Shown piece by piece: positions 5,910-51,229 of a stretch of DNA of 64,000 bases. Both the position numbers and the translations under genes were made by a program. Under the pieces are notes generated by a model. It had not been told where the DNA came from. It saw nothing but the letters and a program-made list of their open reading frames with translations, and ran no database searches. Source of the stretch: Impatiens glandulifera (Eukaryota; Streptophyta; Magnoliopsida; Ericales; Balsaminaceae); contig NC_061868.1 of the NCBI RefSeq assembly GCF_907164915.1, positions 19,339,819-19,403,818 on the forward strand. Direction: 5' to 3'. Positions within the stretch are counted from its first letter, which is position 1. Every line of letters starts with the position of its first letter.

Positions 5910-7184
5910 TGTTAGGATCTAGGTCGAGGCTGGCGGATCGGGGTCTGGCCGGTTAGCTTTTTTAACGGTTGGTGTTTAATCCGGTTAGAGATTAACACCG
6001 GGTTTCAATACTACACAAACTGTCACAAATCCTTGAACCGAGTTCAAGTGCGGAGATGGTTTGTTTCAGGTTGAAGCAACACACACACAGAATGAATAAA
6101 GATAGAATCTGGATAATATCGGTTTGGAGATTAGGAGGTCGGTTTAAGGTATAGTGAATCAGTTAGAACGGTGCAAGTTGGTTAGGGTGAGTCGGTTAGA
6201 ACGTAGAGCCGACATAAAGTAAAGAACAAGACAAAGGTTTTTATGGATGTTTGGAGATAAAACTCCTACGTTACCCCTTCTTCTCGAAACCGCGAGAATG
6301 ATATTCACTAAGGAATACACGAACACAATATGCGATCGAGACTTATTTGCTGCTCGATAAACACTCGTACAATTCTCACAGAAATTGTAATCTCACTTCA
6401 AATGCACACTTAAGCTTTTTAATCTTAAAGAGATAAACACAACTTGTAACTTGGGTTGTTGGAACTCTTAAATGTTGTATCTTGTAACTTATGAAACTCA
6501 AAGAACTGCATTTACTCCTCTTCAGCTCCTTCTTTTATAGGTGAAATGTGCCAACGGTCACATTTCTTCAACGGATACCTTCAGGGTAATACTTGAATCT
6601 GATTGGTTGAGCAGAGGTTCAGTATTGCAGTACTGGTGGTTTAAGCTTCCAAGGCATAGTTCAAACCGACTAGGTTTGTGTTTTACTTAATATAGCAACT
6701 GTCGGTTGGACAGTTGCCTGCACCTAGAAGGTTGTGCCTCCGACTTATCTGAGTGTTAAAAGATCTCTTCAGGCAATCTTCTGTAGCCTGCAGAGTATCA
6801 TCAGACTTGTATGGATATAGTAATGTTACAGTCTGTTCCTTTGATATCATCCTCTGCATATACCCAAAGTGTCTGTTTACACCGATTTGTAGATTGTACT
6901 TAGTTTGATAGTTCTGACTTCTTTCTTAAGTAGTCTCTTCATCGGTTTTCCGGTTGGATACTGCATTTCGGTTTGGGATGTCTACCGGTTGTTCATAGCT
7001 TTAGGTTAACCATATAGCTTTTCGGTTTTGGATACATCCTCTGCTTCTTCTAACCGATCTTGACTTCTTCATCGGTTGGATTCTTGATCGGTTAGAGTTT
7101 TGACCGTTCTTAGTTCTTAACCGATCTTGCACAGGAAATTTGTTTTTGTTAAGTTCTTATTTTAACCGGTCTAATTTATCTAAC
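5910..7184 (-). repeat. E4 3' LTR (1275 bp, family C)
   Basis: Pairs with 27933-29206 (1274 bp), and the two appear nearly identical by eye. On the minus strand it starts TGTTAGATAAATTAGACCGG and ends GATCCTAACA. U3 is rich in CCGGTT words. The conserved block lies at 6241-6283. The polypurine tract sits at its right edge. Confidence 0.9.
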
Positions 7185-7600
7185 AATTTCTTCCTTTTTG
7201 ATTATTTTATTTAAAATATTCAAAATCATGTAAGAAGTAAGAAGTAGGCCAGTTGTTTTAAAAATTTGTTTGGCCGGAATTTTGAAAAAGACTTAGAAAA
7301 AATTTTGGAAAAAATTTTTGGAAAAATTTGTCTTTGAAGAAAAATTTTATATCATCAATTTCTCCTTTTATGATTATTTTATTTAAAATATTGAAAATCA
7401 TGTAAGAAGTAAGAAGTAGGCCGTTGTTTTAAAATTTTGTTTGGCCGGATTTTTGAAAAAGACTTAGAAAAAGTTTTGGAAAAATTTGTCTTTGAAGAAA
7501 AATTTTATCTTATCAATTTCTCTTTTTTTGATTATTTTATTTAAAATATTCAAAACAATGTAAGAAGTAAATTGTAGGCCGGTTTCCAAAAATATTTTAT
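7185..7600 (-). repeat. Three tandem polypurine-tract modules in E4
   Basis: Three direct repeats begin at about 7184, 7357 and 7515 (about 173, 158 and at least 85 bp). Each starts AATTTCTCCTTTTTGATTAT, and its reverse is a purine run followed by TG. On the minus strand each is a PPT able to prime plus-strand DNA synthesis. The middle units share AAATTTGTCTTTGAAGAAAA. A single-unit version is part of the LTR at 40084-40265. Confidence 0.85.
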
Positions 7601-7659
7601 ATATATATAAACTTAAGAAATATAATAAAGTTAACATAAATAAAAGATAATTAAAAATT

Positions 7660-10391
7660 CTATTCCCTCTTCTTAGGCATGTATCTCTCCCGTAGGTATT
7701 CAGCCATCACTCCCTTTCCCGGATTGCAGGGATCGACGCCAACTCTGGAGGAAGATGCTTGATCGCCCGAGGTTTCGGTGAATGGTGAAACCTGTGAAGG
7801 AACCAAGGAACCAATCTGATTGGAACCGCCTCTAGATCCCGCCCTCTTTTTTGCATCGGTATATCCTCTTCCTCGACCTCTTCAACTTCTGGTGAAACCG
7901 GGTTGGGTGGAGGAGCAACAATCGGTTCAGTAATATCGTCCAGCAGCTATTGAGTCTGTTTAGCCGCTGCTTTCTTGGAGGCCTTTCTCTTTCTGGTTGC
8001 CGAACCGGTTGATGGAGTAGCCGCCTTTGATTTCTTATTGGCATCAGCGATATCTTCTAATATCAGATGTTGTTGGAATAGCCGAGCCGAATCCTCATTT
8101 GCTTGAACCGCTTTTTCCGGTGCGGCATTTTCCATCACTTGACAATGTTTAGCCATGGCTGCATCCTTCTGTTCCCTTTCCTTCTGAAGCCGTATTTTCT
8201 CGTCTTCGGCTTCTTGGATCTTTTGAGCTGCAATCTCGTTCTCTTTTTCAAGCGCTTCGTCGGCCGCTAGCTTGCCCGCGATCATCTCCGTCAACTGTTC
8301 GGATACCGCTTTTAGCTCGGCTTGGGTCTGGGCATGCTTTTCTTCAAGCGCTGCCATTTTTTCAAGTATTGAATTGGCCTTATTGCCGTATTGGAACAGC
8401 CCCTCTTCAAGAAATGTCATCCTTTGATCCATTGTCGTATGTTGTTGGGCGGTATTGTTGTGACCCTCTTCAAGAGTCATTAGCCTCTGATCCATTAAAT
8501 CGAGCCACTGGTCGGTTTGAGCAAGATCGTTCTCCAGATTTGTAGTTCTTTCTGTCGTGGAGCTGAACAGTTGGTCGGTCAGGCCGTAGTTATCTTCAAC
8601 GACTGTAAGCCGTTGAACCGCAGAGTTCAGTTTTTCACCGGTAGACTCAATTAACCGGTTGGATTTCTTTGCTCTTTCCTTCATTTTCTTCTGCCACGGC
8701 ATGATGGCATCATTACAAAATTCCTCGATTAAGTCAATGACCTTGTCCTTGGTTAGAGTAAGCGCCGGCGTTTTGTCGGTTTGTGGAGACCCGGGCCGAT
8801 CGGTGAACAGAGTATCCGTTTCGGTTTCAAATCTGTTGACTGTGGGTTCCGTTGGACGAGAGGCATTCTCGGCCTCATTCGGATTCGGACCGCTGTTGGA
8901 TTCGGAACCGTCATAATCTTGAGGATGAGATCTGGAAAAGTGTGAGGCCTCTTGATGACCGGGTTCCGATTCTAACCGTGTCATCTCATCGGTTAGCTCT
9001 CGTTCCTTAGCCGTTAACATTTCCAGCACTAATACATCAAGCTGGGTTTTCTCCTCTTTAGGGACATTCTTTTCACGAAGGTGACGGATGTGGTCGGTGA
9101 GTTCTATCAACCGGGCGTGTGGTTCAACCATCCTTCCTCTTCGAAGAGCGGTGACCACGCTCTTAGTCTTCGTAAAGTCGAGCATCGACCTTTCCATCTC
9201 CACCAGTTTTTCATATCCCTGATGAGCGGGATGCGCTGGTAACATGTCGACATAACAGACTTCATGTCGTTCTAGAGCCCATTGAAAGTAAATATTGCTC
9301 GCAACATGAGCCTGCTTGAAAAGTTGTTCTATTATTTGGGAGACAAGTTCCTCTCCCAGTTGTCGAACGTTGTCGTCCGCGGTTTCAAATACCTCCGGTC
9401 GCCTGGCTAAACCGGTTTCATCATTAACAGTTCTGGCCGGTTGTTCTTCATTGACGACCTTCCCTTCCCTTTGTCTAACCGATTCTCCTCGGTGTTATTA
9501 GAGTTGGTGCGGCTAGAGTTAGACCCGGAATTCTCCGGATTAGGATTGTCAGCTTGAATATTAGCTGATCCGGATGTGTGTGGAACCGCCTTGCTTCCGG
9601 ATTGTTCACCCGCCGGAGCCTTTTTCTTTCTACGCTGCGATTTCCTAGGACGAATGTTTGATTGTTTACCGGATGAGACCTTCACTCTGCCCGGTCGAAT
9701 CGTTGTTCCCAAGAAGTGAGAAGATCTTATTATCTTACTAGAGGAATAATAACACTCGGCCGGTTTCGGCATTTGAGTGGCGCATCAGCTTGCCGAGAGG
9801 AACGGGGTATCCCCAAGACTGTTTTGAAGACAAATCCACCATCTCACACAGATTGGAGAAAACAACCTTGGCCTAGTTGATCTTAATGCCTCTGACCAAG
9901 CCGGCCAGCATCTCAATTTTCAAACGTGTGAGGTTATCGTAGTTGCCTCCTCTTCCTTGGACCGATTTTGAGAGAATCTCGCAAAGTGGCCTGTATGCCG
10001 GTTTGAGGTCCATTTTCTTACCGGACACCATTATCAGTTGGTTAGTATCCGATACATCACACTGAACCGCAAGGAGTTCGTCCTCGTTCGTTTCCACGGA
10101 GAAGTCACTCCCTTCTGTCGGTAAGCGGAGAACTTCAACAACCGATTCTTTTGTAAGTTTAAACGGTTTTCCACCGACCGTTGCGGATATAATTCCTTCA
10201 TTGAGTACGGAAGTTTGGAAAAACTCTGTGACCGTGTCTTGATACTGGACGAACGGTTCATTCAGAAAGTTTTCAAGACCCGAGGCAGATATGAGATTTA
10301 GCACCTATTTAACCTCTATCGATCCGTTGGTTTGAATTTCTTCGAAATCCACTTGGAAGATGTGAGTGAAGAGGACAAAATCACGACCCAT
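7660..10391 (-). pseudogene. E4 accessory gene 1, long form
   Basis: Long accessory protein after pol, of unknown function. It starts at the ATG ending at 10391 (MGRDFVLFTHIFQVDFEE). The N-domain has QVDF, ASGLENFL, LPTEGSDF and the GIKIN-stop-AKVVF segment, where the family has NW. A disordered basic stretch follows (RPRKSQRRKKKAPAG), then a second conserved block (YEKLVEMERSMLDFTKTKSV) at about 9210-9150. After this comes a long coiled coil with repeated TxxLExxxxQxDQ heptads (8600-8300), and a basic end, MPKKRE. Breaks: TAG at about 10306, TAG at the NW motif (about 9870), two frameshifts (about 9770 and 9430), and a TAG near 7944 before the last 95 codons. The frame would be roughly 900 codons. 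The protein looks nucleic-acid-binding and self-associating, but that is inference. Confidence 0.75.
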
Positions 10392-10498
10392 TTAGCTTGG
10401 AGACACCGAAGCTGGAAAGATTAAGAGCTTAAGGATAAGTTGAATGCTAGAGAGAGAAAGTAGATTCGCAGAAGAAGGAAATAAAATGGCGAATGAAG

Positions 10499-10508
10499 GT
10501 ATTAATAG
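10499..10508 (-). promoter_or_regulatory. TATA-like element before accessory gene 1
   Basis: The minus strand reads CTATTAATAC about 110 bp upstream of the ATG at 10391, followed by a CT-rich leader (TTTCTCTCTCTAGC). This is weaker than the matches before genes 2 and 3. Confidence 0.35.
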
Positions 10509-10895
10509 GTAGCGACCTGGAATACGAACCGACGCGAACCGTCACATCAAGAAAGGGCGCCAATTTTCCCTCCAAAATGAGTTGGCGGTAAGTCTTTGGG
10601 CGGCAACCTTTTGGTGGGAGTTCTTTTGGCGGGAAGTTATTAGAGCGGTTAATCTTTTAACCGATGATTAAGGAGGCGGTGATTTAACCGGTGATTAGTG
10701 AAGCGGTAAGCGATTTTAACTGGTTGTGAATTTAAACCGATATTTGAACTTTATAATTTTGAACCGATTTTCGAATTTTATAATTTAAATTCATATTTGA
10801 TTAACGAAGAAGACATAATAATGAAATAATGATAGAACCGATATTAAGATCGGTTGGAAATACAAATACAAGGGTAAGATTAACCGTCCTAGAAC

Positions 10896-11590
10896 CTAAA
10901 TCATTCTAGAGATTTTGTCGTCCGCCATTTCCTCGTTTAGAATGTTTGAGGGATTCACCGGTATACCTGGTCCAAGATTTGGAATGCAGGCCCGAATGAC
11001 CCGGCTCAGTTGAGGAGCATAGCCGAACCGTTTCTTCGTTTCGACCATAGTTTTCAAGTTGTTAAAGATGACCGATGCCCAGTTGATGGGGGTATTGCTG
11101 ACGATATAGGTCATCATGTCGAAAGCTCTTCTAGAGTAGTTTTGATTTGGAGATTGGCAGATGATCGACCGGTTAACGATCTCATGCAGGAGTTGGATGT
11201 GGGGAGCAAGAGTGGCGTTAAGGCCGTGATTTTCCACCGGTGTTTTGGATCCGGAGAACAGTTCAGCGTAATCAACAGCTGCCCTGCCCACCCTTGAAGG
11301 AAAGTCCGAGAACTCCTCGGTTGGGAGATTAATACTCCCGACGAGTCCGCTCTCAGGGAGAATGATGGCATTGTTTTTCACGGTGGAGACAATGGCACGT
11401 TGAGCATATATGCATTGTTGAAAAATTCCAGTACCTTTGGAATAAACAGAGGTCCGGATTCTTCTAAGAAATTACGAAGTTCGGTTTCGTCTAGGGATTC
11501 AAAGATTAATTCCCTTGTTTCCACGTCTTCCATGTCGAGTAAAGAATCGAAATCGATGCAAAGATAGTTTTTGAGAGTGCGACGAGACAT
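10896..11590 (-). pseudogene. E4 accessory gene 2, short form
   Basis: Paralogue of the neighbouring accessory genes, N-domain only (about 231 residues). It starts MSRRTLKNYLCIDFDSLL at 11590. Motifs in order: CIDFDS, LRNFLEESG, VLEFFNNA, then after a frameshift AIVSTVKNNA, LPTEEFSDF, INWASVIFNNL and the end DDKISRMI. The frameshift sits in an ATATATG run near 11405. It is otherwise open. There is no coiled coil or basic tail. It is separated from gene 1 by about 504 bp and from gene 3 by about 416 bp, each spacer with a TATA-like site. Function unknown. Confidence 0.75.
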
Positions 11591-11668
11591 TTTTCAGATC
11601 TTGCTAAGAGAGATAGAGAGTAAAAAATATTTTGTTTTGAGGTGTATTGGGATGAGAGGGAGAGGTTT

Positions 11669-11676
11669 CTTAAATA
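11669..11676 (-). promoter_or_regulatory. TATA element before accessory gene 2
   Basis: The minus strand reads TTTCAAATCTATTTAAG, 80 bp upstream of the ATG at 11590. The same words (TTCAAATCTATTTAAG) stand before the accessory gene of E10 (49819-49826), although the two elements are otherwise highly diverged. This supports a conserved promoter. Confidence 0.6.
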
Positions 11677-12006
11677 GATTTGAAATGGGAGGGAAAGTAA
11701 GAGCATTTAATGTTAATATTCTTTTTTGTCTCATTAATGCTGGTGAATATTTATGTTTTCAAAACGCCTTAGGAAGTGGCGTTTTTGACCGGTTACGGAG
11801 ACCGAGGCTAAGAATCTAGTTGGGAATTAACTAAGTTTGTATAATTTCCATGCAGTGGGAATTCAAAGTTACTAGATTTTCATTAATGAAATGTGAATTA
11901 CATTGAACCGAAGGAAACATAAATTAAACCAAAAGGAAGCATAATCGAGTAGGATAAAAATAAAACCGGTGCGTGAGGCAAAATGACCGGTTGACCGAAG
12001 GAGTGA

Positions 12007-12748
12007 CTAATGGCCGGAAGAGGTGAGGTGTCGGTTCTTCTTCTTCCAAGCTTTCTCAAACCGCTCATAGAAGGAATCGACGGAATGCCTGGTCAAGACC
12101 TGTGATTGGTTCAGCCCTTCGCCTGGACAGAGCGGAACCCCGAGTTCGTTAAGTAGAGAGATGATTTGAGAAATGAAGCCTGTATGACGGGTATTGATCA
12201 TCCAGATCAGGATGTCAAACAGCAACCTAGACCAATTAACCGGAGTATCAGTTGTGATGGTGGTCATGATGTTTAAGATTGTGGGGCAGTAGGTGTTGGT
12301 TACATCCTTTCCCAATGTCCCTACCGATGATGTCGTTGAGAAGCTGATATTCAGCCCTCAACGATGACCGAGTTCCGTGGTCATCGACCGGAGAGTTGGA
12401 GAGAGAGAATTCCAGAGATATCTCGGCTTTCTTTTCAGCCGAGACATTTAGGTCAGTAAGACCTTCCTTCGGAAGGTCGAAGCACCGAGCGAAGTCTCGC
12501 TCGGAGAAGTCAAACACCTTTCCTCTTACCCTAGATTGGATAAGGGTATTAAAGAATGGGGTACCACGGAAGACTCTAACATTATGGAAAAATTCAGTAA
12601 CAGTTTTCGGAAAGATGACATGTTTGTCATCTAGGAAAGGCTTAAGACCGATACTTTCCAAGGACTTAATCATTTTGAATATCTCGTAGTGTTGTGTTCC
12701 ATGTGTCGAGTCAAAATCAACTTGAAGAATATTTTGGAACTGAGACAT
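12007..12748 (-). pseudogene. E4 accessory gene 3, short form
   Basis: Third tandem paralogue, first after pol. I prefer the ATG at 12748 (MSQFQNILQVDFDS) to the one at 12802, because a TATA box lies only a few bases from the latter. Motifs: LQVDFDS, GLKPFLDD, VTEFFHNV, RGKVFDFSERDFARCFDLPKEG (the GK before VFDF is typical), then after a frameshift near 12312 TPVNWSRLLFDIL and GVPLCPGEGL. It ends with a basic tail (FEKAWKKKNRHLTSSGH) at 12007. About 247 residues. No membrane segment or signal peptide is seen. Function unknown. Confidence 0.75.
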
Positions 12749-13284: not shown

Positions 13285-14954
13285 TTAAGAAATGAGTTGA
13301 TTAATATCGGTTAAACCGAAGATGTTTCTGAAGTAAGAAAACTTAGCTTCCTGCAGAGGCTTTGTGAAGATATCGGCTACTTATTGATCTGTTGCTACAT
13401 ATTCTAGCCGGATATGCTTCTACATGACATGTTCCCGGATGAAATTATGCCTTATGTCGATGTGCTTGGTTCTAGAGTGTAAAATCGGATTGTATGTAAT
13501 TGCTATGGCACTTGTGTTGTCAAAGAAAATAGGAGACTCTTCGGCGGTGATACTGAAGTCCTTTAGTTGCTGTTGAATCCATAGGAGTTGTGAAAAACAA
13601 ATTCCGACTGCCAGATATTCAGCCTCTACGGTTGATGTAGCTACCGAAGTTTGCTTCTTGCTGTGTCATGAAACAAGCCGATCACCTAGGAATTAGCATG
13701 TTCCGCTAGTACTTTTTCTGTCAACATTACAACCTGCATAGTCTGCGTTAGAATAACTTGTGAGGTTAAAAGATGAGTCCTTTGAATACCACAGACCGAC
13801 TTCAGGGGTTCCCTTTAGGTATTTCAGGATTCTCTTAGCGGCTATATAGTGAGACTGTTTGTGATTAGCCTGGAATCTTCCACACACTCCGACTTCAAAT
13901 TGTATGTCTGGTCTACTTGTTATCAAGTATAAAAGTGAACCGATGATTCCATGATAAGCAGTCAGGTCTACTACCTGACCGTCATCATCTTTATCAAGCT
14001 TGATTGATGAGCTTATTGGCGTGGCGGCAGATGAGCATGTATCCATCCTAATTTTCTTTAGAAGTTCCTTTGTGTATTTGGACTGACTGATGAAGGTTCC
14101 TCCTTTGAGTTGTTTAACCTGAAGACCTAAGAAGAAGCTTAATTCTCCCATCATACTCATTTCAAATTTGTTAGTCATCAAGGTTGAGAATTTATCACAC
14201 AGCTTAGGATCGGTTGATCCGAAAATGATATCATCCACATATATTTGAACAAGTAGAATGTGTCCCTTTTTCTCAAATTTAAATAAAGTTTTATCCACTG
14301 AACCTATTGTAAAATCATGATGTATCAGAAATGCAGTTAATGTCCAAGCTCTAAGAGCTTGTTTTAAACCGTACAATGCTTTATTTAGACGATATACATG
14401 ATTAGGCAGGTCAACATTTTTAAAACCGGGTGGTTGTCAACGTATACTTCACGTAGGTCACCTTTTAAAAATGCACTTTTAACATCCATTTGGAAAACTT
14501 TAAAATTTTTGAACGTAGCAAAGGCTAGAAAAATCCTAATGGCTTCAATCCTAGCTACAAGAGCAAATGATTCTTCAAAATCAATGTCTTCTTCCTGTTT
14601 GTATCCTTGTGCCACTAATCTAGATTTGTTCCTCGTAACCAAACCGTCTTCATTGAGTTTATTTCTGAATACCCATCTTGTTCCTATGACTGGTTGATCT
14701 TTAGGTCTAGGGACTAGATACCAGACTTTATTACTCTCAAACTGGTTTAATTCTTCTTGCATTCCCAAGATCCAATCCGGATCCGACAATGCTTCATCCA
14801 CCCTTTTCGGCTCAATCTGGGATATGAAAGCGGAATTAAAGTATTCCTCCAGTTTTTGTCGCCTAGTTTGGACGGGTTTTGAAGGGTCACCTATGATAAA
14901 CTTAGTAGGATGATTTGTATTCCTTTTGAGATTTGGTTCAGAAATGTCTACCAA
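13285..14954 (-). pseudogene. E4 reverse transcriptase and RNase H
   Basis: C-terminal half of the copia polyprotein. RT blocks in order: [65 protein letters not shown] and the catalytic YVDD (in VQIYVDDIIFGS, about 14220-14250). RNase H follows with NADYAGC (Asp), TVEAEYLA (Glu) and FFDNTSA (Asp), ending near FRNIFGL. Breaks: a frameshift near 14430 between palm blocks and stops in RNase H near 13670 and 13420. The RT motif set is otherwise complete. The TAG near 13420 falls at the same codon as a TAG in E5. Confidence 0.9.
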
Positions 14955-15029
14955 ATCACCGTTTGTTTGATCAAGGCTAGACAGATCGGTAGGCTGATCA
15001 ATAGTGTCAGACCGACCGATTTCCTCAAT

Positions 15030-16101
15030 TTAAACCGAGGTGTCAGCTTCCTGCTGTATGGCAGCTTGATCCGGCTGGGTTTCAATAAAACCCATTTGGT
15101 CATGGACAAACCGTCTGAAAACCGGAACCTCATCTTCACTATCAGAGTGGATATTATTGTTTTCTAATCTGTTGTGTAGAACAAAGGATGATGCAAGGTT
15201 ACTTTCAACCGATTCATCGAATACAACATGAAGAGATTCTTCCACAGTTAAAGTTCTAGTATTATATACTCTATATGCTTTACTAACCGCTGAGTAACCT
15301 AGCATGATCCCAATATCGGATTTTGCATCAAAAGTAGATAAGTAATTTTTTCCATTTATGTGAATATAACATTTACAACCGAAAATTTTAAGATACCTAA
15401 TGTTAGGAATTCTATCAAAATACACTTCATACGGTGTTTTGTTATGAAATTTGTTAATGAAGGACCGGTTTTGTGTATAACATGCAATATTGATAGCTTC
15501 AGCTCAAAAGTTTTGAGCAACACCCGAATCGGCTATCATAGACCTTGCGGCTTCCTTGAGAATTCGGTTTCTTCTCTCAGCCAGGTCGTTCTGTTGAGGA
15601 GTTCTAGCACTAGACAACTCGTGTTTAATGCCAGATTCATCAAGAAATGCATTTAGAGTACTATTTGTAAATTCGGTTCCTCTATCACTCCTAATTCTGT
15701 TTATTCGTGTTGATTTTTCATTTTGTAAACGCTTAAGCAATGTAATTAAATTTGATGCGGTTTCACGTTTAGATGCCAAAAATGTGACCCATGTATACCT
15801 AGAATAATCATCAACAACGACCATAGTGTAAAGCATACCACCTAGGCTGGTGACCTAATTGGTCCAAATAAATCCATGTGAAGAAGATCTAAGCATCGGT
15901 TAGACTGAATGTGTCCTTTACTCTTAAAGAATGTTTGGTCTGTTTACCCATTTGACAAGTTGAACACACCTTATCCTTATTAAATACATTATCAAGAATT
16001 CCTTCAACTAGCTTTTTACCGCGGATATAGTTTAAGGTTTTGAGGTTTAAATGGTTTAGCCTTTTATGCCATAGCCAAGTTTGATCGGTTTTAGCTACCA
16101 T
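15030..16101 (-). pseudogene. E4 integrase
   Basis: Copia integrase, which inserts the cDNA into chromosomes. It starts with the HHCC zinc motif (HKRLNHLN ... CSTCQMGKQ, 16060-15940). The core contains VVDDYSRYTWV, RSDRGTEF and PQQNDLAERRNRIL, so the D, D and E residues are all present. After a TGA at FWAEAI (about 15505) the C-terminal part follows (NKTPYEVYFDRIPN, IFGCKCY, VVFDESVES). At least two frameshifts or stops separate the pieces. Confidence 0.9.
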
Positions 16102-16113
16102 GCAAATAGGATG

Positions 16114-16455
16114 CTACACTTCATTTCTCCAGTCTACCTTGTATATATTTCCTAACCTATTTCTGGTACCCTGAGAGTTTTTAACTAAGCATGCATGCCT
16201 AAGAAATTCTACAGTATATCCAGCATCACACATCTGACTAATACTTAGCAGGTTAAAATGTAGATTTTCAACTAAAAGTACATTATCAATTGTTAAATTA
16301 ACATGGACAATCTTACCCTTTCCCACAGTTCTACCTCTTGAGTTGTCACCGAAGACAATCATTGCATCGGTTTCTATTTTGATGTCGGTTAGAAGGTTGT
16401 TGTTTCCAGTCATGTGTCTGGAGCAACCGTTGTACAGATACCAATCAGAATTCCC
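16114..16455 (-). pseudogene. E4 aspartic protease
   Basis: Copia-type protease that would cut the Gag-Pol polyprotein. Recognisable blocks are CSRHMTGNNNLL, FGDNSRGRTVGKGKI and HFNLLSISQMCDAGYTVEF. The active-site motif WYLDSGCS of the family reads WYLYNGCS here (about 16420-16440), so the catalytic Asp is lost. This inactivation is independent of the one in E2. Confidence 0.85.
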
Positions 16456-16599
16456 AGCCGTTTCTTTATATCCTGCAAAATATACATATTTATAACTATT
16501 TGGTACCCACTTTTACTTTGGTCCACAATTGATTAGTCCCTTGGGTATCCAGACTTTGATAAGTCGGACAACTTTCCCGGTTATGGTTCTAACTAATTT

Positions 16600-17959
16600 C
16601 CTATACTCGGTTTGACATATTTCTGTTGTCCTAAGAGTGCCTTATTTTGTGGTGCCCTTTGGTTTACTCTATGTGGTCGTGGATAGGTTTGTTTACCGTT
16701 TGGCCGGTTGGCTTTCCTTCTCTCAGGATGAATCCATTTTTCGGAGTCATTGGACTTACATAGGTTATTTCTTCTTCCGGTTTTGAGTCACTCTGGTTGG
16801 TTGAAGAGCTTTTGACAAATCTTACAAAGGGAAGATTGTATTTTGTGAGCTTCATCTTGTCGGAATGGTTCTGGTTGTTAGATTTGTTGTTTTTGTATCC
16901 AAGACCCAATTTGCATTTGGGATGTCTTGTATACTTTAACAATTGGTTCACCATTTCACTGGATCTTTTCCATGCGGCTATTCGATACCTGGTTCATGCA
17001 TATTCCTCTTCGGTCAACTCTTGAACTGACTCTTTAAGCTGTTCATTCTTAGAGGATAGTTTAGGTGCTGCCTCGGTTTCTAAGATTTCATCAGGTTGAA
17101 TACTATTGGTTTCAGATTCTAACTGGGTTGGTGCTATGGGTTCGGTTTCAAAGTTAAGTCGGGTTAGTATTAAGGTTAATAGGTTCTTGTACTCTACTAC
17201 CATGTCATTTAGTGCATTAAATAACTCATCTTTAGTAAATTCTTTACAAGAAGTATCAAATATCTATTCCTCGTTTTCCATTAGACAGGTGAGTTCATCA
17301 TCGCTGTCACTATGAGCCCATAAGCTTCCTCCATCATCGGCTATCAGTGCTTTCTGAACTTCCCTTCCTTCACCGGTTTGTGAGTAGTTGTTTCTTTGGT
17401 TATAATCATCTGGTTTCCGATCATCCCGTCTTGGTTTTCTACATTCCCACATGAAATGTCTCAAACAATTGCAATTATAACATCTAATATTAGATTTATC
17501 ACCGTAGTTATAGTTGTTTGTCGGTTGGCTTTTTTTCATGAATCTGCCAAACTTCTGTGCAAGTATTGCCATAGCATCCTCAGTGAATTGTTCAGCGGTT
17601 CTGATCGGTGCAGGAGCAACCGGTTCTATAGATGTGACTAATGCCTTAGTAGCGGTTGAAGCTGATGTTTCATCTTCGATCCTAGATCTCATTTCAAACT
17701 CATATGCCTTTAGATCTTCGAATACATCGTGTAGCTTCATCTTGCTTAGGCAGTTTGATTCCCTCATCACCATCGTCTTCATATCCCATGCACTCGGAAT
17801 AGATCTTAAAGCTTTGATGATAATTTCCTTGTTATCATAATTCTTTCCAAGAGTTGATAGCTCGTTTATCACATTTGTAAACCGGTCACTGTACTCCCTC
17901 ATGGTTTCTCCTAGCTTTATCTTGATGTTTTCAAACTTCTGGTAGCCACCATTATCTTG
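16600..17959 (-). pseudogene. E4 gag, C-terminal part
   Basis: Continues the gag interrupted at 27564 by E5. It contains KFENIK after a one-base loss, NELSTLGKNYDNKE, FEDLKAYEFEM and a CX2CX4HX4C zinc knuckle (CYNCNCLRHFMWEC, about 17445-17490), followed by an acidic linker and a Gln/Glu-rich predicted coil (16994-17203). Stops at 17276 and in the linker separate it from the protease frame. Confidence 0.85.
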
Positions 17960-17964
17960 TTTTC

Positions 17965-20000
17965 TGTTGGGTCAAATTATTTTGACTAAGTGTCGAAATA
18001 ATTTAAACACTGAGATTTTGATGATGAAATAACTTATAAGTTTTGATACAGGTGTATTGAAACAATATTTCATAAGACTTGGATCTAATGAGGGTCATTA
18101 GACCGATTTTGGCTTTCATTGCATAAAATTAGACGTACAGTCTAACTCATTGGAGTTAGACGTGTAGTCTAATAGACGTATAATTAGACGAATAGTCTAA
18201 TAGATACACGAAATTAGACGTAAGTCTAATGCATAGAATTAGTCGTACAGTCTAACTCATCGGAGTTAGACGTGTATTCTAATAAATGTAAAGAATTAGA
18301 CGTAAGTCTAATGAATGCACGGAATTAGACGTAAGTCTAATAAAATTAGACGTACAGTCTAACTCATCGGAGTTAGACCTATAGTCTAATAGATGTAAAG
18401 AATTAGACGTAAGTGTAATGAATACATAAAATTAGACGTATAGTCTAACTCATCGAAGTTAAACGTGTAGTCTAAATAGACACAGAATAAGACGTAAGTC
18501 TAATGCGCTTATAATTAGACGGGTAGTCTAATTGATATTCGGAATCAGACGTACAGTTTAATTCAGTGGAGTTAGACGTGTAGTCTAATATATTTGCAAT
18601 TAGACGGGTAGTCTAATTTATGCGGAATTAGATGTGCAGCCTAACTTAATGAAGTTAGACGTGCAATCTAATAGAATGTGAAAGTTAGACGTGCGTTTAA
18701 CTCCTTCAGACAAGTATGAAGTAGAACCGTAGTTAGACGTGCAGTCTAACTCAGTGGAGTTAGACGTGCAGTCTAATGGTTATTGGATAATTAGACGTGT
18801 TGTCTAATTAGTGAAAGTTAGACGTGCGTATAACTCCTTCAGACAAGTCTGAGGTAGAACTGGAATTAGACGTGTAGTCTAACTCAGTGGAATTAGACGT
18901 ACAGTCTAACTCAGTGGAGTTAGACGTGCAATCTAATAGTTATTTGATAATTAGACGTGTAGTTTAATTAGTGAAAGTTAGACGTGCGTCTAACTCCTTC
19001 AGACAAGTCTGAGGTAGAACTGGAATTAGACGTGTAGTCTAACTCAGTGGAGTTAGACGTGCAGTCTAATAGTTATTGTAATTAGACGCGAGTCTAATTC
19101 TATTAGACCAGGCGGTCTAATAGACGTTTTTATATTAGAAGGAGATGACTTATTTCATTAGACTGATTTTCAAAATTTTTCTAACTGAAATACGTCTAAT
19201 GCTCAGTTTAAGCAGTACGCTTGAATCTAGCATTTCACCTACCCACGTGCTATAGTTGTACCCTACTTATGCTCCACTTTCTAGTGAAGATTAGTACAAC
19301 AACTATATGCATTCAATCAAGGAATGCCACGTAAGAGAATTTTCCTCAAATTACTTGTTTTGTAGGTACATCCCTGATGGAATATTCGGCGCACTACTAG
19401 TGATGTACGACCACGATCCTTGTGCTCAGAACCTGCTGTGTACAATGGAGGCTTTCCAATGGAAGAGTGCCCCGTATCATTCTTGAAGTTTCGACCGTTA
19501 GCTCCTGCTCAGTATTTAACCAATCCTAAGGACAACGGACGAAATACCTGTTACTTGCCAATCTTGCTTACTGAAACTACAGAGAATTCAAGCCTTTGAA
19601 TATCGTGAAGCTTCTTTCTGATTGTACTGTGTGTGAATCGAGAGAGAGAGATAGAATCAAAATAACTTTAGCTGAGTGATATTCTTCATCTTGTAATTGA
19701 ACAGAAAGTGTTCTGTTCAATAGTGAGCTATGTGTGTGTGTAAACTGTATTTGATTTTAATCATATTATAGTGAATCGTTCCGGTGGTTGGAAGAAGGGG
19801 TGACCTAGGAGAGTTTCTACGAACATCCATAAACAAACCCAAGTAAACAATTCCGTCTTGAATCTGTTTCAAGTGTTTACACAAGTTTGCGTAGAATAGA
19901 AAGCGAATTAAATCTCTAACATGATTTCTTTCTAACCGTTTTTCATAAGCCTTCATCCTTAGCCAGACCCCAGTCTCTATCGATAAAGCCGATCCTATCA
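17965..20000 (+). repeat. E5 5' LTR (2036 bp)
   Basis: TG...CA ends. U3 (about 18130-19140) is a long array of TTAGACG...GTCTAA palindromic words, with a 133-bp higher-order unit ending CTCCTTCAGACAAGTCTGAGG present three times (18701, 18834, 18994). Downstream is a TATTTAA-containing segment near 19513 and the conserved block at 19791-19834. Confidence 0.9.
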
Positions 20001-20002
20001 AT

Positions 20003-20013
20003 TGGTATCAGAG
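20003..20013 (+). other. E5 primer-binding site
   Basis: TGGTATCAGAG, a perfect match to the initiator-Met tRNA complement, two bases after the LTR end. Confidence 0.9.
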
Positions 20014-20049
20014 CTTTGTTTATATTCTCAAACATCAAAAACCCAAAGC

Positions 20050-20460
20050 ATGTCTTGCATCAATGAAATTCCTCTTCTGTCAAAGGACAACTACGATTGT
20101 TAGATGATAAGGATGCAAGATCACTTGACTGTTATTTACTATGATATGTGGAGTGTTATCACTGATGGCTCCATAAAGATTTCAAAGCCAAGAAGTGAGT
20201 GGACTACTGAACAAAAAGTGACCAACAACCTGGATAATGTTGCTAAGAATATTTTGTTCCAGTCAGTCAACATGAATATGTTCTGGGAGATCAAGTCTTG
20301 TTCCACTGCAAAAGAGATATGGGATAAGCTCAACCAGATCTATGGTGTAAATTCTCAAGCAAAGAAGAACCAGAAAGTATTCATTTGCAGTCAGAACAAG
20401 TCCAGATAGGCTGACAGCGATACAGAGCAGTCTCCAACTTAAAAAGAGAATGAAGCTGTA
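20050..20460 (+). pseudogene. E5 gag, shortened
   Basis: Starts at the ATG at 20050 (MSCINEIPLLSKDNYDC), with TAG where the family has Trp. The frame continues through WSVITDGSIKI, WTTEQKVTNNLDN and KEIWDKLNQIYG, then ends near 20410. About half of gag, including the zinc knuckle, is missing compared with E2 and E4, and the protease frame begins 60 bp later. This looks like an internal deletion. The element would need Gag supplied in trans. Confidence 0.85.
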
Positions 20461-20469
20461 ACTTGTCTG

Positions 20470-20862
20470 ATGGCAGATGACCAATCTAAGGTACAAATAA
20501 ATGAAGGACTGGAGGAATCTGTATGGTATCTTGATAGCGGATGTTCCAGGAATATGACAGGAAACAGACGGCTTCTCAATGATATATCAGACTGCTCTGG
20601 ACCTAAGATCACATTTGGTGACAACAAGAAGGGTAAGACCATGGGTAATGGTAAGATTATCCATGGTAACCTAACTATTAATGACGTGCTGCTGGTTGAC
20701 AATCTGTATTATAATTTTATCAGCATTAGTCAATTATGTGATAATGGTTTGTCAGTAGACTTTCAAACTCATGCATGTTTAGTTAAAGTCCAAGATGGAA
20801 ACATTTTATTGACTAGAAGTAGAGTAGGAATGACCAGAAATGGTTATGGCATAAACGTTTGA
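20470..20862 (+). pseudogene. E5 aspartic protease
   Basis: The active-site motif is intact (WYLDSGCSRNMTG), followed by FGDNKKGKTMGNGKI and the FISISQLCDNG block. It is open from 20470 to a frameshift at about 20860, beyond which the integrase zinc motif (HKRLNHLN) continues in another frame. Of the proteases here it has the best-preserved catalytic site. Confidence 0.85.
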
Positions 20863-21971
20863 ACCATTTGAATTTTAAAACCATCAACAACATTTGTTAA
20901 AACAATTTAGTTATTGGTTTACCCAAACTTCGGTTTTCAAAGGACAAGATATGCACTGCTTGCCAGTTAGGCAAACAGGGAAAATCATCGTTCAAAAGTA
21001 AAAGGAAATCACAATTCAGCCATATCCTAGAACCTTTACATATGGATCTTTTTGGTCCAATTCCTGTAAAGAGTATAGGAGGAATGAGATTTGCCTTAAT
21101 TATTATCGATGACTTTTCTCGTTTTACATGGGTTGCATTTTTACCATCAAAAGATAAAACTGCTGAAAACTTGATTAGGATATTTAAAGGGATTCATAAT
21201 CAGAAATCTTTAAATATCACATGCATCAGAAGTGATCAGGGAACTGAATTTATTAACAGATACCTATCATCTTATCTTAATGAGATTGGAATTAGGCACG
21301 AGTTGTCTAGTGCCAAAACTCCACAGCAAAACAGCATTGCTGAGAGAAGAGTGAGAACTCTGAAGGAAGCAGCAAGGTCTATGCTTGCTGAATCAGATGT
21401 TCCTCAAAGGTTCCGGGCGAAAGCCATTAGTACTGCTTGCTATACACAAAATCGGTCAATAATTAACAAACATTTTGATAAAACTCCCTATGAACTGTAT
21501 TATGGGAGAATTCCCACAATTTCTCACTTTAAGATATTTGGTTGTAAATGTTTTATCCATAACAATGGAAAGGTTTATTTGTCTGCTTTTGAAGCTAAAG
21601 CAGATTAGGGATACATGTTGGGATACTCATTAGTAAGCAATGCTTACAGAGTATACAACAAAAGAACACGGACTGTTGAATAATCCCTTCATGTAGTGTT
21701 TGATGAGCCTATTGAGAGCAAATCTAATGAATCCATTGATCTTGCTGACAGACTAAAAGCGACTAGTCTTGAGTCTGTAAGTGAAGAAGAAGAAACGTTG
21801 GACAAGCAGATGGATATATCTGATCCAGTGGCTGATCCGATTGAAATTCAACCAAACGTGCAAACTCCTGTTCAACAAGAAGTTGAGAGTTTGGATGTCG
21901 CGGTGTCACCGGTTCAGATGACCAATCCGATTGGTTCCAACTTCAGATGGAACAAAAATCATCCACCATAA
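20863..21971 (+). pseudogene. E5 integrase
   Basis: The HHCC motif (HKRLNHLN ... CTACQLGKQ) lies at 20850-20980. The core is at 21042-21608, with IIDDFSRFTWV, RSDQGTEF and PQQNSIAERRVRTLKEA, so D, D and E are kept. It continues with TPYELYYGRIP and IFGCKCF, a TAG at 21606, another stop at 21681, then an acidic linker rich in Glu and Asp (SVSEEEETLD) leading into RT. Confidence 0.9.
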
Positions 21972-22019
21972 CTGATAATCGGAAATCCTTTTTCTCCTCA
22001 AAGGATAAGACGTCAACTA

Positions 22020-23580
22020 ATGGATGAAATGGCCAATTCTGTATTTATTTCTCAAATTGAACCTAAGAAAATTGGTGAATCTATAGTAGATCCAGATTGG
22101 ATCAATGCTATGCAGGAGGAGTTAAACCAATTTGATAGAAATAAAGTGTGGTATCTTACTCCTAGACCAACTAACAAGTCAGTCATAGGAACAAGATGGG
22201 TCTTTAGAAACAAGCTTAGTGAAGATGGCTTAGTCATTAGAAACAAAGCTCGTTTAGTTGCTCAAGGATACAGACAAGAGGAAGGTATTGATTTTGATGA
22301 TTCTTTTGCACCGGTTGCAAGACTAGAGGCAATCAGAATCTTCCTAGCATATGCATCATTTAAGAATTTTAAAGTATTTCAAATGGATGTAAAAAGTGCA
22401 TTCCTAAATGGAAAATTAAGTAAAGAAGTTTATGTTGAACAACCCCCTGATTTTGTAGATAATGTTTTGCCAAATCATGTTTACAAGCTTAACAAAGCAT
22501 TGTATGGTCTAAAACAAACTCCTAGAGCTTGGTATGACACTTTAACCAATTTCTTGTTTGATCATGATTTTGTTGTTGGAACAGTGGATAAAACCCTATT
22601 TAGATTTACTAAAGATTCTCACATACTACTTGTTTAGATATATATTGATGACATTATTTTTGGGTCAACTAACCCCAAACTGTGTGAGAAATTTGCCAAG
22701 CTGATGCAGGATAGGTTTGAAATGAGCATGATGGGAGAACTTACATTCTTCCTTGGGCTTCAGATCCGTCAGCTAGAAAACGGAACTCTTATCAACCAGG
22801 CCAAATACACCAAAGAATTGTTAAAGAAGTTTGGTTTGGAGAACTGTTCTGCAGCAGCTACTCCAATGAGTTCTTTAGTTAAATTGGATAAAAATGAAGG
22901 TGGCCAAAGTGTCGATGTAACAACATATAGAGGACTCATCGGTTCTTTGCTATATGTAACTATTAGCAGGCCAGACATTCAATTTGCTGTTGGTGTGGCA
23001 GATTTCAGGCTGATCCTAAACTCTCTCATTTTACTACTGCTAAACGTATTCTTCAATACTTAAAGGGAACTCAAAATGTGGGACCGTGGTATCCGAAGGA
23101 TTCCAGTTTCAATTTAATTAGTTTCTCAGTTGCAGATTATGCAGGGTGCAAAATTGATAGAAAAAGCACAAGTGGAACTTGCCAGTTCTGTGGAGATCGT
23201 CTAATCACATGGTTCAGCAAGAAGCAGATGTCGGTCGCCACGTCTACAGCAGAAGCAGAGTATCTTGCAGTTGGTAATTGTTGCTCTCAAGTTTTGTGGA
23301 TTCAACAACAGCTTAGAGACTATGGAATTGAGGCTGATGAATCTCCAATTTTCTGCGACAACACAAGTGCTATTACAATCTCTTACAACCGAGTTCTGCA
23401 TTCTCAGACAAAGCACATTGAAATCAGGCATCATTTCATCCGAGAACACGTCAATTAGAAGCAAATTCGTCTTGAATATGTTCTTACAGATCAACAAACT
23501 ACAGACATTTTCACGAAACCTATACCGTAAGCTAAGTTTTCTCATTTTAGAAACATGCTAGGTCTTGTTGATCTTGATTG
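22020..23580 (+). pseudogene. E5 reverse transcriptase and RNase H
   Basis: RT blocks: [57 protein letters not shown], and the catalytic YIDD (in IYIDDIIFGST, 22645-22670). A TAG at 22635 sits a few codons before YIDD, where the family has Gln. A frameshift near 23000 separates RT from RNase H (VADYAGC, TAEAEYLA, CDNTSAI). A TAG at 23456 is at the same codon as in E4. It ends at FRNMLGLVDLD near 23580. Confidence 0.9.
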
Positions 23581-24327
23581 ACGTAATTACGTGCATAAAT
23601 TAAGGGGGAACTTATTATTCAAAACGCAACTAAACAGATATGAAAGACGGAGGTCTCAACCTGTCTTAAGGATTCAGAGTTTGAGAAACTTAGACGAACA
23701 TCTACCTTAGCAGTTTCATCTTTATATGAAATCATTGTCTTGGTTATTTTAACCTTCTTGGTTAGACGGATGCGTCTAATAGACGGATACGTCTAATAAA
23801 CGTTAGACGTTTTTATGTCATGAGCAAGAGGATGCTAACGTCTAACCAAACACATGTGTCTCACGTGATGTTATTGCATAATTAGACGTACACCTCTAAT
23901 AGACTGATTTTCAAAAGGAAGTTGAAAATGTGAAAAGGAGAATAAACGTCTAACTATTGGTGCAATTAGACTCTTCATCTTCCGGCTATTCGGACAACTG
24001 TCCTTTAATAATTTCTGATCAAGTATACTTTCCCGCCGAAAAATAAATCAGTCATTCCTCAAAAGAATTGAAGACACGTGTCTCTCAATATGCAAGGAAT
24101 GACTAATATTTCTGATAAATTTTGCTTGTACACTTAGTATTAAACGTTTTGTTTCATGCTAACATTAAATGCTGTGTTTATTGGGAACAATCATTAGTTT
24201 TCTTCTACATGATTAAAAACCCTAATATTGATAGGATCATTCACTCTAAAAGATAGAAGATCCTTGAAATCAATCTCTCTCTCTCTTTAGAAGTCGAATC
24301 GTTCTAACTCTTGTTCATCAAATCATA
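23581..24327 (+). other. Spacer and putative promoter of E5 accessory gene
   Basis: No reading frame. It contains scattered TTAGACG words (23761-23980), a palindromic G-box GACACGTGTC at 24073-24082, a possible TATA (TATTAAA near 24140) and a CT-rich leader (CTCTCTCTCTCTTTAG near 24275) before the ATG at 24328. Confidence 0.4.
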
Positions 24328-25086
24328 ATGTTGCCTTTCCGACCAAAATCGATTCAAGTGGACTTTCAATCCGTATCCACTTTACATTCTCCAGGAATGA
24401 ATAGGATGTTCGAATCGTTAAAAGCTTCTGGGCTGAGAAGATTCCTCACCCCTCATGAAACCTATCACGAACAGTTAGTTAACGAATTCTTCGAAACCGC
24501 TAGCTTCTTTCAAGACAGTGTTATTGTTGGTGCTGTAATGGGCCAGATGGTCTGTATTTCATAAGAATCTTTTGGTGCATTTTTCCATCTCCCAAAAGAA
24601 GGTATTGATGATTTCTCGACCACTCCTCCTAATCTAATGATTACGATGATAAAAGTATTTTCCGATTCCCCTAAAGTAGACATTCATGGAAAGAAAAACC
24701 TCCTAAAGGTTGAATATGCTCTCTTAAGCGATATCATATCGAAATCCCTTTTATCTAAAGAAACTTCTTACAAGTATTGTACGAAAGTCTTTCAGATAAT
24801 GGTGGCTATCACCAGTGGTGTTCCTTTGAACCGGACAAGCTTCCTTTTCGGGAATCTTGTCAGAATAGTTGTTGCTCGGAAGAAGATTTTCGGATTTGAT
24901 GGTCCTCTCATCTCTCTTCTTTGTTTCCTCCTGAACGAACCCGGTAAGATTTTTCCCCTTCCTTCGAAGATCCTGAACTACCAGAAAGTGGTAGATTACA
25001 TTCAAAGGGTGGAAACGCTTAAGTCGAAGAAAAGGAAAAGAGAAGACTCCAACTCCCCTCTAACTGTAGTCTTAGAGATCTCTTAG
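24328..25086 (+). pseudogene. E5 accessory gene, short form
   Basis: Same family as the E4 accessory genes, between RNase H and the PPT, on the gag-pol strand. Motifs in order: IQVDFQSV, GLRRFLTP, VNEFFETA, a TAA at 24562 (the only break), then FFHLPKEGIDDF, VEYALLSDIISKSL, VPLNRTSFLFGNL and a nuclear-localisation-like tail KSKKRKRED. About 253 codons. The family position NW is N-R here, so Trp is lost. No coiled coil follows, and the 25087-25356 spacer is empty apart from the PPT approach. Function unknown. Confidence 0.78.
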
Positions 25087-25356
25087 GTTGAAGTCTATCC
25101 TTTCCAGAAGTTATGACCAGGAAGAAGAAGAAGAATAGTGATTAAATGTCTTTTTAAAGTTATTTTGAATGTTTTCACGATGCTTTTGGTAAACTTATTT
25201 TGGTTACATTGAACAATGTTTTGAGTGTTTCTTCTGAAAACACTCATATGTGGTTAACTTGGATATTTTTGAATGATTTACTTGCATGCTAATGGTTTTG
25301 TTTATATGATGAATGCATGCTTTGATATATATATGCAGGTTTGTAATTTCTTCATC

Positions 25357-25369
25357 AAAAAGGGGGAAA
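25357..25369 (+). other. E5 polypurine tract
   Basis: AAAAAGGGGGAAA directly before the 3' LTR start (TGTTGGG at 25371), the priming site for plus-strand DNA. Confidence 0.9.
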
Positions 25370-25370
25370 T

Positions 25371-46066: not shown

Positions 46067-46081
46067 ATTTCCCCCTTTTTG
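46067..46081 (-). other. E10 polypurine tract
   Basis: ATTTCCCCCTTTTTG; on the minus strand a purine run AAAAAGGGGGAAAT directly before the LTR start. Only one PPT copy is seen here. Confidence 0.85.
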
Positions 46082-46251
46082 ATGATGTTAAAACTAAGTT
46101 AAAAATCAAATTATTAACAAAAGATTAAAAGATTAACCAGTATATTTATAAAAATAAAATACATAAAATAAATGAAGTTTAAGATTCCTCCCTTTTCATT
46201 CTTGAATATTCATCCTTGGAGACCTCTTTCGCCGAGTATAAGATCTATCAG

Positions 46252-49679: not shown

Positions 49680-49818
49680 TTAAGTTTAGAAAATCTTAGG
49701 GTTTAGAAAATAGACTAAGAAGACAATTAAGTATCTAGAGAGAAAACGGAGCGAAATAAGATTTAGGGTTTTAGAAATCTCAAATATAGCGTAAAATATT
49801 TTAGACGTTCAAGACACC

Positions 49819-49826
49819 CTTAAATA
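49819..49826 (-). promoter_or_regulatory. TATA element before E10 accessory gene
   Basis: The minus strand reads TTCAAATCTATTTAAG, the same words as before accessory gene 2 of E4, about 140 bp before the ATG at 49679. A G-box ACACGTG lies next to it (49837-49846). Confidence 0.55.
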
Positions 49827-49849
49827 GATTTGAATCGACACGTGCCCCA

Positions 49850-51200: not shown

Positions 51201-51229
51201 CCCTAAATTTATGCATGAAATTATTTTGT

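What the first reader, a model, noticed from the sequence alone, without database searches (positions are those of the whole stretch)
7660..12748. Three tandem accessory genes in one copia retrotransposon
E4 carries three paralogous genes between RNase H and the 3' LTR, on the gag-pol strand. All share xVDF, GLxxFL or an equivalent, LPxEx and (I/V)NWxxxxF motifs in the same order. Related genes occupy the same place in E5 (24328-25086), E10 (46252-49679), E12 (60913-64000) and, as a tail remnant, E3 (29431-30357). So at least five elements with quite different LTRs carry this gene, in one to three copies. I know copia elements with one envelope-like ORF after pol (Sirevirus type), but not this family or tandem amplification of it. 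It resembles repeat-derived hypothetical proteins I recall from Lamiales drafts and, loosely, the 'putative plant transposon protein' domain; neither link is verified.
Basis: partly seen in the sequence, partly recalled or inferred. Interest (0 to 1): 0.9.

Follow-up and report, generated by a model that had tools for sequence, protein, structure and literature searches.

The report
Tandem accessory genes in copia retrotransposon
A plant jumping gene carries three old, diverged copies of one extra gene beside its copying genes; one extra gene is known at this spot, but the papers searched do not describe related copies in tandem, and the copies hint at a fast-changing gene family of unknown use.

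Summary
The observation largely holds. E4 is one copia element (matching target duplications, LTRs 93% identical) with E5 nested inside. Between RNase H and the 3' LTR, on the coding strand, lie three homologous, now broken genes. Leave-one-out profiles recover all six copies in the window (three in E4, one each in E5, E10, E12; best E 5e-12 to 2e-40). E3 shows no such domain, so four elements carry it, not five.

The place is that of the sense 3' extra ('envelope-like') ORF of SIRE-lineage copia elements; E5 and E10 show Sirevirus junctions. The domain is distantly related to Pfam PF20167, in consistent register but below its cut-off; that family is published in a gypsy Athila extra ORF.

New here: tandem copies of two architectures, short single-domain genes (E4 copies 1, 2; E5) and long two-domain genes (E4 copy 3; E10; E12), apparently split before these elements diverged. 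Leaders look promoter-like. Eight scanned domain pieces show no membrane segment, so a soluble, perhaps nuclear, accessory protein is likelier than an envelope; function is inferred.

No outside relative was found, though the protein database holds plant copia proteins. Verdict: new variant of a known kind.

The parts
27933..29206 (-). E4 5' LTR; PBS at 27919-27930
   Evidence: LTR pair 1188/1275 identical; TAGTT on both sides of E4
5910..7185 (-). E4 3' LTR
13301..17964 (-). E4 gag-pol pieces, copia type; the gag end is interrupted by nested E5
   Evidence: copia families (RVT_2, Retrotran_gag_2, rve, SH3_retrovirus, Pol_BBD) among the 31 ORFs scanned, which does not name the member
12010..12748 (-). 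E4 copy 1: short single-domain gene, one frame break
   Evidence: (6.3e-19 and 5.1e-12 leave-one-out)
10899..11590 (-). E4 copy 2: short single-domain gene, one frame break
   Evidence: 2.3e-31 and 1.3e-6
7950..10392 (-). E4 copy 3: long gene; N-terminal domain about 10392-9741, second conserved stretch about 9270-9110, charged tail with basic end (ORFs 9410-9784 and 7950-9494). That these frames are one gene is inferred
   Evidence: (4.7e-12, 1.5e-5, 0.43)
11591..12006 (-). leader between copies 1 and 2: TATA-like box at -86, CT-rich stretch, CCGG-type half-boxes
10393..10895 (-). leader between copies 2 and 3: TATA-like box at -115, CT run, CCGG-type half-boxes at LTR density
7186..7660 (-). 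E4 3' junction: purine tract + AT next to the 3' LTR; repeated unit (7175-7423 resembles 7346-7581)
   Evidence: the purine tract departs from the Sirevirus octamer
17965..27562 (+). E5, copia element nested in E4; LTRs 17965-20000 and 25371-27562; PBS 20003; PPT octamer 25361-25368
24328..25083 (+). E5 accessory gene, short type, one in-frame stop
   Evidence: 8.8e-30, 6.1e-15
23581..24327 (+). E5 leader with 10 LTR-type half-boxes (2 in 3.6 kb of gag-pol, 0 in the gene)
44684..58733 (-). E10, copia element; LTRs 44684-46066 and 57455-58733; PPT octamer 46069-46076; CAATG on both sides
46290..49643 (-). E10 accessory gene, long type (low end set by eye); domain 49643-48964, second conserved stretch 47966-47655; broken
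   Evidence: (1.5e-40, 2.2e-10)
60916..64000 (-). E12 accessory gene, long type, cut by the window end; domain part 64000-63824 (to 63716 with X at a stop), second conserved stretch 62545-62255
   Evidence: (7.5e-18)

Best explanation
These are sense 3' accessory genes (the 'envelope-like' or eORF-3'F position) of SIRE-type copia retrotransposons in a plant. They form one fast-diverging protein family distantly related to Pfam PF20167. SHOWN: one element carries three copies; there are two architectures, a short single-domain protein of about 230-250 residues and a long protein with a second conserved stretch and a charged, basic-ended tail; E4 holds two short genes and one long gene. SUPPORTED, moderately: the short/long split predates the separation of E4, E5, E10 and E12, so the ancestor already carried a small gene cluster and members were later lost. 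INFERRED: each gene is transcribed from its own internal promoter in its leader (boxes shared with the LTR, TATA-like box, CT-rich untranslated stretch). The products are soluble and probably nuclear (basic tails), acting as accessory factors in the element's cycle, most likely by modulating transcription or host silencing. Conflict with the host would explain rapid divergence and duplication.
For: Homology of all six copies by leave-one-out profiles, no seventh in the window. Codon positions 1, 2 and 3 are 48%, 55% and 31% identical, pooled over 24 piece pairs of 50 or more codons, 2001 codons. PF20167 in one register on copies 1, 2, 3 and E10. 4 of 31 scanned ORFs matched it at E<=0.02; these are domain pieces, so 4 of 8 domain pieces and 0 of 23 others. 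Copy 3 with E10 and E12: C-block branch 65/87 (bootstrap/SH-aLRT); middle block copy 3 + E10 89/88; a shared second stretch (seed from copy 3 finds E12 at 9.3e-6 and E10 at 0.024; pairwise down to 5.8e-8). Sirevirus signs: octamer + AT + TG exact in E5 and E10; E5 half-boxes 54 and 60 in the LTRs, 10 in the 747-bp linker before the gene, 2 in 3566 bp of gag-pol, 0 in the gene. Leaders: TATA then CT run in 3 of 5 (1 of 1000 shuffle sets reach 3), CT run within 110 nt of the ATG in 4 of 5 (3 of 1000 reach 4). None of the 8 domain pieces scanned reaches hydropathy 1.6 (highest 1.40; 3 shorter pieces were not scanned); basic clusters lie near the end of the E5 product and the copy 3 tail.
Against: No relative outside the window: 0 of 1386 and 0 of 43 candidates, although the database holds plant copia RTs. 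PF20167 is below its curated cut-off and absent from both E5 pieces, the E12 piece and the copy 1 C-part. Trees have 5-6 rows and moderate support; the N-block tree does not separate the types and joins E5 with E10 (45/10). AlphaFold models are poor (pLDDT 56 and 48), so no fold was assigned. E4 and E12 lack the exact octamer, and the inverted repeat is weak in E10 and E4 (17 and 40 of 300 shuffles as good). Leader motifs were chosen after reading the leaders; only 5 of 15 leader pairs share a stretch. Published Sirevirus env-like genes are said to share membrane and coiled-coil segments (PMC3414828, passages), which these domains do not show. Plant env-like genes have been called far more degenerate than pol (PMC1142308, passages), a sign of weak constraint. 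Nothing here tests nuclear entry, transcription or silencing. All copies are broken.
Confidence: 0.55

Rival explanations
1. Envelope or cell-to-cell movement gene: the proteins act like retroviral Env or help particles pass plasmodesmata, as the name 'envelope-like' suggests.
For: Same place and strand as the Sirevirus env-like gene (PMC3414828, passages; PMC7264820, section 4). Some tail segments have heptad-like stretches (E10 segment 46652-46960: 4 of 200 shuffles reach its score; copy 3 tail 13 of 200), though many segments were scanned and most show nothing unusual.
Against: No membrane-like segment in the 8 domain pieces scanned. Short-type genes have no tail at all. Two tail segments pass 1.6: one E10 segment (47222-47602, 1.62) and one E3 frame (2.13) not tied to the gene.
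Confidence: 0.15
2. Recent tandem triplication inside E4 only, by template switching or unequal recombination.
For: Three copies head to tail with LTR-type boxes in the spacers; copies 1 and 2 group in the middle block (92/88) and weakly in the N-block (70/53); E10 has part of its leader twice (31 of 40 nt alike, 0 of 200 shuffles as good), so this region does duplicate.
Against: E4's copies are 24-32% identical at the protein level (one 40-column comparison is 12%) against RT identities of 61-72% between the elements. Copy 3 groups with E10 and E12 and shares their second stretch.
Confidence: 0.1
3. Independent captures: each copy was picked up separately from host genes or other elements (for example gypsy Athila), not duplicated within the lineage.
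For: Partial PF20167 similarity occurs in an Athila extra ORF (PMC11728184, passages); Neumann et al. suggest that eORFs in general were acquired independently from multiple sources (PMC6317226, passages).
Against: All copies share one domain, one place and one strand, and 5 of 15 leader pairs share a stretch.
Confidence: 0.2
4. Chance ORFs or low-complexity resemblance.
For: All copies are broken; the region is AT-rich.
Against: Leave-one-out E-values down to 1.5e-40; positions 1 and 2 kept while position 3 is near saturation.
Confidence: 0.01

Closest known systems
SIRE / Sirevirus eORF-3'F ('envelope-like' gene), Ty1/copia
   Same: Place between RNase H and PPT, sense strand, LTR-type boxes before the gene (clear in E5), rapid divergence
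   Different: Passages seen speak of an env-like gene or eORF-3'F in an element, not of several homologous ones; here up to three, of two architectures. No membrane segment found in the domain. Sequence relation to SIRE1-type env-like proteins not tested (no reference sequence at hand).
PF20167 Transposase_32, 'putative plant transposon protein'
   Same: Consistent register over most of the 177-position profile in four pieces
   Different: 27.8 bits at best against a 45-bit cut-off; not a member by Pfam's rule
Athila 3' extra ORF of sunflower (Athila 14 ORF(+), PMC11728184, passages)
   Same: Sense 3' extra ORF with partial PF20167 similarity and predicted nuclear localisation
   Different: Ty3/gypsy element, one 487-aa ORF. 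The same paper remarks that plant elements may have three additional 3' ORFs encoding env-like proteins, without saying in the passages seen that they are homologous
Retand / Grande extra ORFs (TRP28, PF04195; PMC11963269, passages)
   Same: Extra ORFs between pol and 3' LTR, proposed regulatory role
   Different: Antisense, different Pfam domain, gypsy

Membership tests
Sirevirus / SIRE lineage | PPT octamer AGGGGGAG (terminal A in ToRTL1 and Tnd-1) exactly 10 bp before the 3' LTR, then AT/TG | tested here: met
   The terminal-A form is exact in E5 (25361) and E10 (46076-46069); E4 and E12 keep a purine tract + AT/TG but not the octamer (rule from PMC2829016, passages). AGGGGGAG itself was not searched
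Sirevirus / SIRE lineage | Several identical PPT copies in the linker, on average four, mostly near the 3' LTR | tested here: inconclusive
   AGGGGGAA: 7 in the window. E5 has one more, at 23603 before the gene; E10 has upstream ones at 46377, 47261 and 51132; E12 one at 61023 in its tail; E4 none
Sirevirus / SIRE lineage | Symmetrical repeat boxes in the LTR and at the 5' side of the env-like gene | tested here: met
   Clear in E5 (54 and 60 in LTRs, 10 in linker, 2 in gag-pol, 0 in gene), though its box lacks the usual CGG-CCG core; partial in E4 (9.6 and 13.9 per kb in the two spacers, 7.3 before copy 1, 12.6-14.1 in LTRs, 5.8 in gag-pol, 7.2 in the copy 3 tail); weak in E10 (10.5 in linker, 5.8 and 8.6 in LTRs, 7.1 in gag-pol)
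Sirevirus / SIRE lineage | Inverted repeat around the PPT/LTR junction | tested here: inconclusive
   E5 1 of 300 and E12 2 of 300 shuffles reach the score; E10 17 and E4 40 of 300
Sirevirus / SIRE lineage | RT/INT clade position | not tested
   No labelled SIRE reference RT at hand; E4, E5, E10 RT pieces are 61-72% identical to each other
PF20167 Transposase_32 | Score above the gathering cut-off (45 bits) | tested here: not met
   Best 27.8 bits (copy 3), 25.8 (E10)
PF20167 Transposase_32 | Collinear similarity over the profile | tested here: met
   Profile 4-64 (copy 1), 91-157 (copy 2), 4-139 (copy 3), 37-177 (E10) in agreeing register (one search read with the alignment)
Retroviral envelope | Membrane-spanning segment | tested here: not met
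   Highest 19-residue hydropathy in 8 domain pieces 1.40; simple Kyte-Doolittle scan; 3 pieces under 60 residues not scanned; one E10 tail segment reaches 1.62
Retroviral envelope | Fusion or receptor-binding activity | not testable with these tools
   needs experiment

The most novel reading that the evidence does not exclude
Many of the seemingly unrelated 3' extra ORFs of SIRE copia elements are one ancient, very fast-evolving accessory gene family (PF20167-like) that is amplified in tandem inside elements, with short and long forms each driven by its own internal promoter, and that is shared with gypsy Athila elements. This would answer the published question of fast evolution versus independent acquisition in favour of one family in conflict with the host.
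Probability: 0.35. Interest if true: 0.65.

Novelty: new variant of a known kind. Interest (0 to 1): 0.5.

Why it matters
Neumann et al. 2019 sorted SIRE 3' extra ORFs into 19 groups with little mutual similarity (blastp above 1e-10) and left open whether they evolved very fast or came from different sources, and whether they function at all (PMC6317226, passages). Here several paralogues sit in one element at 24-32% identity, and a profile unites them with genes of three other elements. A result that tempers this: by plain blastp (set to a database of one million residues) five of the six copies are still linked by at least one pair below 1e-10; only copy 1, best 1.1e-6, would fall outside. 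So this window shows the route from one family to separate groups, not the full split. Short forms (about 230-250 codons) lie near or below that survey's 250-codon cut-off and could be overlooked. A domain shared by copia and gypsy extra ORFs would make a common accessory function testable.

Tried and rejected
Protein database: alignment A1 (early, with partly out-of-frame ends) gave 1386 candidates, 0 at E<=0.01; the E10 domain piece gave 43 candidates, 0 at E<=0.1. The better alignment A3 was not used for that search: of the three allowed, one went to an RT control, which gave 7999 hits of 8000 scored, with plant records among the 120 listed. Viral contigs: 3 pattern matches, no relative; a first try with A1 had no usable stretch. 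PDB sequences with A3: best E 0.12 and 0.34, judged chance. AlphaFold2 with A3 and A4: mean pLDDT 56 and 48; no fold search was made because matches of such models mean little. Pfam of 10 tail pieces: none at E<=0.1. Weak Pfam hits taken as chance: Vac_Fusion, DUF294, DUF7118, DUF3117, HEAT_DAAF5, PDH_C, Macoilin. E3 as a carrier: rejected. A short-type remnant before the E10 gene: looked for, none, though part of its leader is duplicated. G-box (CACGTG) as a common leader element: in 2 of 5 leaders only (E5, E10). Papers: searches listed none that I recognised as describing several homologous sense 3' ORFs in one copia element. Only open-licence papers are held, I saw listings and passages and read one review section, so this is weak evidence of novelty; PMC11728184 does mention 'three additional 3'aORFs' in plant elements. 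Recalled only, from no call: that Gesneriaceae (Dorcoceras) drafts hold similar repeat-derived hypothetical proteins; that melon 'envelope-like' proteins carry PF20167.
Full report
What was checked. The window is plant DNA packed with nested copia elements. Self-comparison gives E4 on the minus strand, LTRs 5910-7185 and 27933-29206, 1188 of 1275 positions identical, flanked by TAGTT on both sides. The primer site lies at 27919-27930 with one mismatch. E5 (plus strand, 17965-27562) sits inside E4, at its gag end; TTTTC flanks it on both sides with the right copy one base out. E10 spans 44684-58733 with CAATG on both sides. So the three genes of the finding belong to one element; the self-comparison (repeats of 200 bp or more) shows no second LTR pair among them.

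The genes. Pieces were translated as they stand and aligned. Profiles made without the copy in question find it again in each of six cases, the best piece at E 4.7e-12 to 1.5e-40 against 1401 six-frame segments. Of 12 pieces, 11 score below 1e-4; a 28-residue piece of copy 3 scores 0.43. The best segment outside the chosen pieces (0.0021 to 0.42, listed in 5 of 6 runs) is the stretch right after the E12 domain, probably its end; one other segment reached 0.48. The full profile finds no seventh copy. Identities among E4's copies are 24-32%, apart from one 40-column comparison at 12%. Over 24 piece pairs of 50 or more codons, 2001 codons, positions 1, 2 and 3 are 48%, 55% and 31% identical. The alignment was made on protein, which favours positions 1 and 2, and the pairs are not independent; still, a recognisable protein with position 3 near saturation argues for long selection on the protein before decay. 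Every visible copy is now broken: one in-frame stop in E5, two in the copy 3 domain, one in E12, frame breaks in copies 1, 2 and E10.

Two architectures. Copies 1 and 2 and the E5 gene end shortly after the domain (about 230-250 codons in all). Copy 3, E10 and E12 go on for hundreds of codons, with a second conserved stretch in the same order: copy 3 tail against E12 6.4e-7 and 5.8e-8, against E10 1e-3 and 9.9e-5, E10 against E12 about 1e-7. A seed from copy 3 alone finds E12 at 9.3e-6 and E10 at 0.024; the joint profile of the same call contains its hits and is not independent. Block trees (5 or 6 rows): C-block copy 3 with E10 and E12 65/87, copy 1 with E5 81/90; middle block copies 1 and 2 together 92/88, copy 3 with E10 89/88; the N-block is unresolved and joins E5 with E10 (45/10). 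I read this as an old short/long split that predates the elements, on moderate support. RT pieces of these elements are 61-72% identical, while domain pieces are mostly 22-43% identical (53% for E10-E12), so the accessory genes change much faster.

What family. Profile and protein positions agree across the four within about three residues, by my own reading. In a scan of 31 ORFs, 4 matched it at E<=0.02 (that these are the domain pieces follows). Both E5 pieces, the E12 piece and the copy 1 C-part did not match. All scores are under the 45-bit cut-off, so this is a distant relative, not a member. The same Pfam family is reported, as partial similarity, in a sense extra ORF of a sunflower Athila (gypsy) element with predicted nuclear localisation (PMC11728184, passages).

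What place. E5 and E10 show the Sirevirus PPT rule exactly, in its terminal-A form; E4 and E12 only loosely (rule from PMC2829016, passages). In E5 the LTR half-box recurs in the linker just before the gene (10 in 747 bp) and hardly in gag-pol (2 in 3566 bp), gene (0) or downstream (0). That paper reports such extra boxes at the 5' side of the env-like gene. In E4 the spacers hold 9.6 and 13.9 boxes per kb, against 12.6-14.1 in LTRs, 7.3 before copy 1, 5.8 in gag-pol, 7.2 in the copy 3 tail and 2.7-4.6 in the domains: a weaker case. Neumann et al. report such an ORF in 74% of SIRE elements, in 19 groups with little similarity (PMC6317226, passages). The MASiVEdb paper says that the env-like genes share little sequence apart from membrane and coiled-coil segments, and names internal promoters among expression routes (PMC3414828, passages).

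How it may work. A TATA-like box followed by a CT run occurs in 3 of 5 leaders, with 1 of 1000 shuffle sets as good; a CT run within 110 nt of the ATG occurs in 4 of 5 (3 of 1000). The motifs were picked after seeing the leaders. Of 15 leader pairs, 5 share a stretch that at most 3 of 200 shuffles match: copy 2 with E10 (16 of 16 nt) and with E5 (14 of 14), copy 1 with E5 (30 of 35), copy 3 with the upstream E10 leader, and the two E10 leaders with each other (31 of 40); the other 10 show nothing. Hydropathy finds no membrane segment in the 8 domain pieces scanned. Basic clusters lie near the end of the E5 product and of the copy 3 tail. I therefore prefer a soluble, probably nuclear accessory factor over an envelope; modulation of transcription or silencing is inference.

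Limits. No relative outside the window was found, and the control shows that the database does hold plant copia proteins. The search needs shared 5-letter words and limits length, so this does not prove rarity. By plain blastp five of six copies still link below 1e-10, so the window alone does not explain the 19 published groups. The own-genome search did not complete. Structure models were too poor to use.

Noticed in passing
window 41369-43829: Direct repeats 41369-41861 and 43337-43829 (92.5% identical) enclose one 281-aa ORF that looks gag-like: perhaps a gag-only non-autonomous LTR element.
   Followed up: no
window 5584-5909 and 29207-30513: E3 is scrambled: an LTR start with its repeat array joins, across the E4 insertion, to a Gly/Arg-rich coding tail and a second LTR start, with no gag-pol between, as if the arrays in the LTR and before an accessory gene had recombined.
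   Followed up: partly
window 49644-50720: E10 carries part of its leader twice (31 of 40 nt alike, 0 of 200 shuffles as good) but only one accessory gene was found.
   Followed up: partly
window 38839-40265 and 31046-32021: Two further stretches resembling the E4 LTR (about 82% and 79%).
   Followed up: no
window 59913-60395: The E12 LTR region holds about 28 copies of a 17-bp unit, a different box from the palindromes of E5.
   Followed up: no
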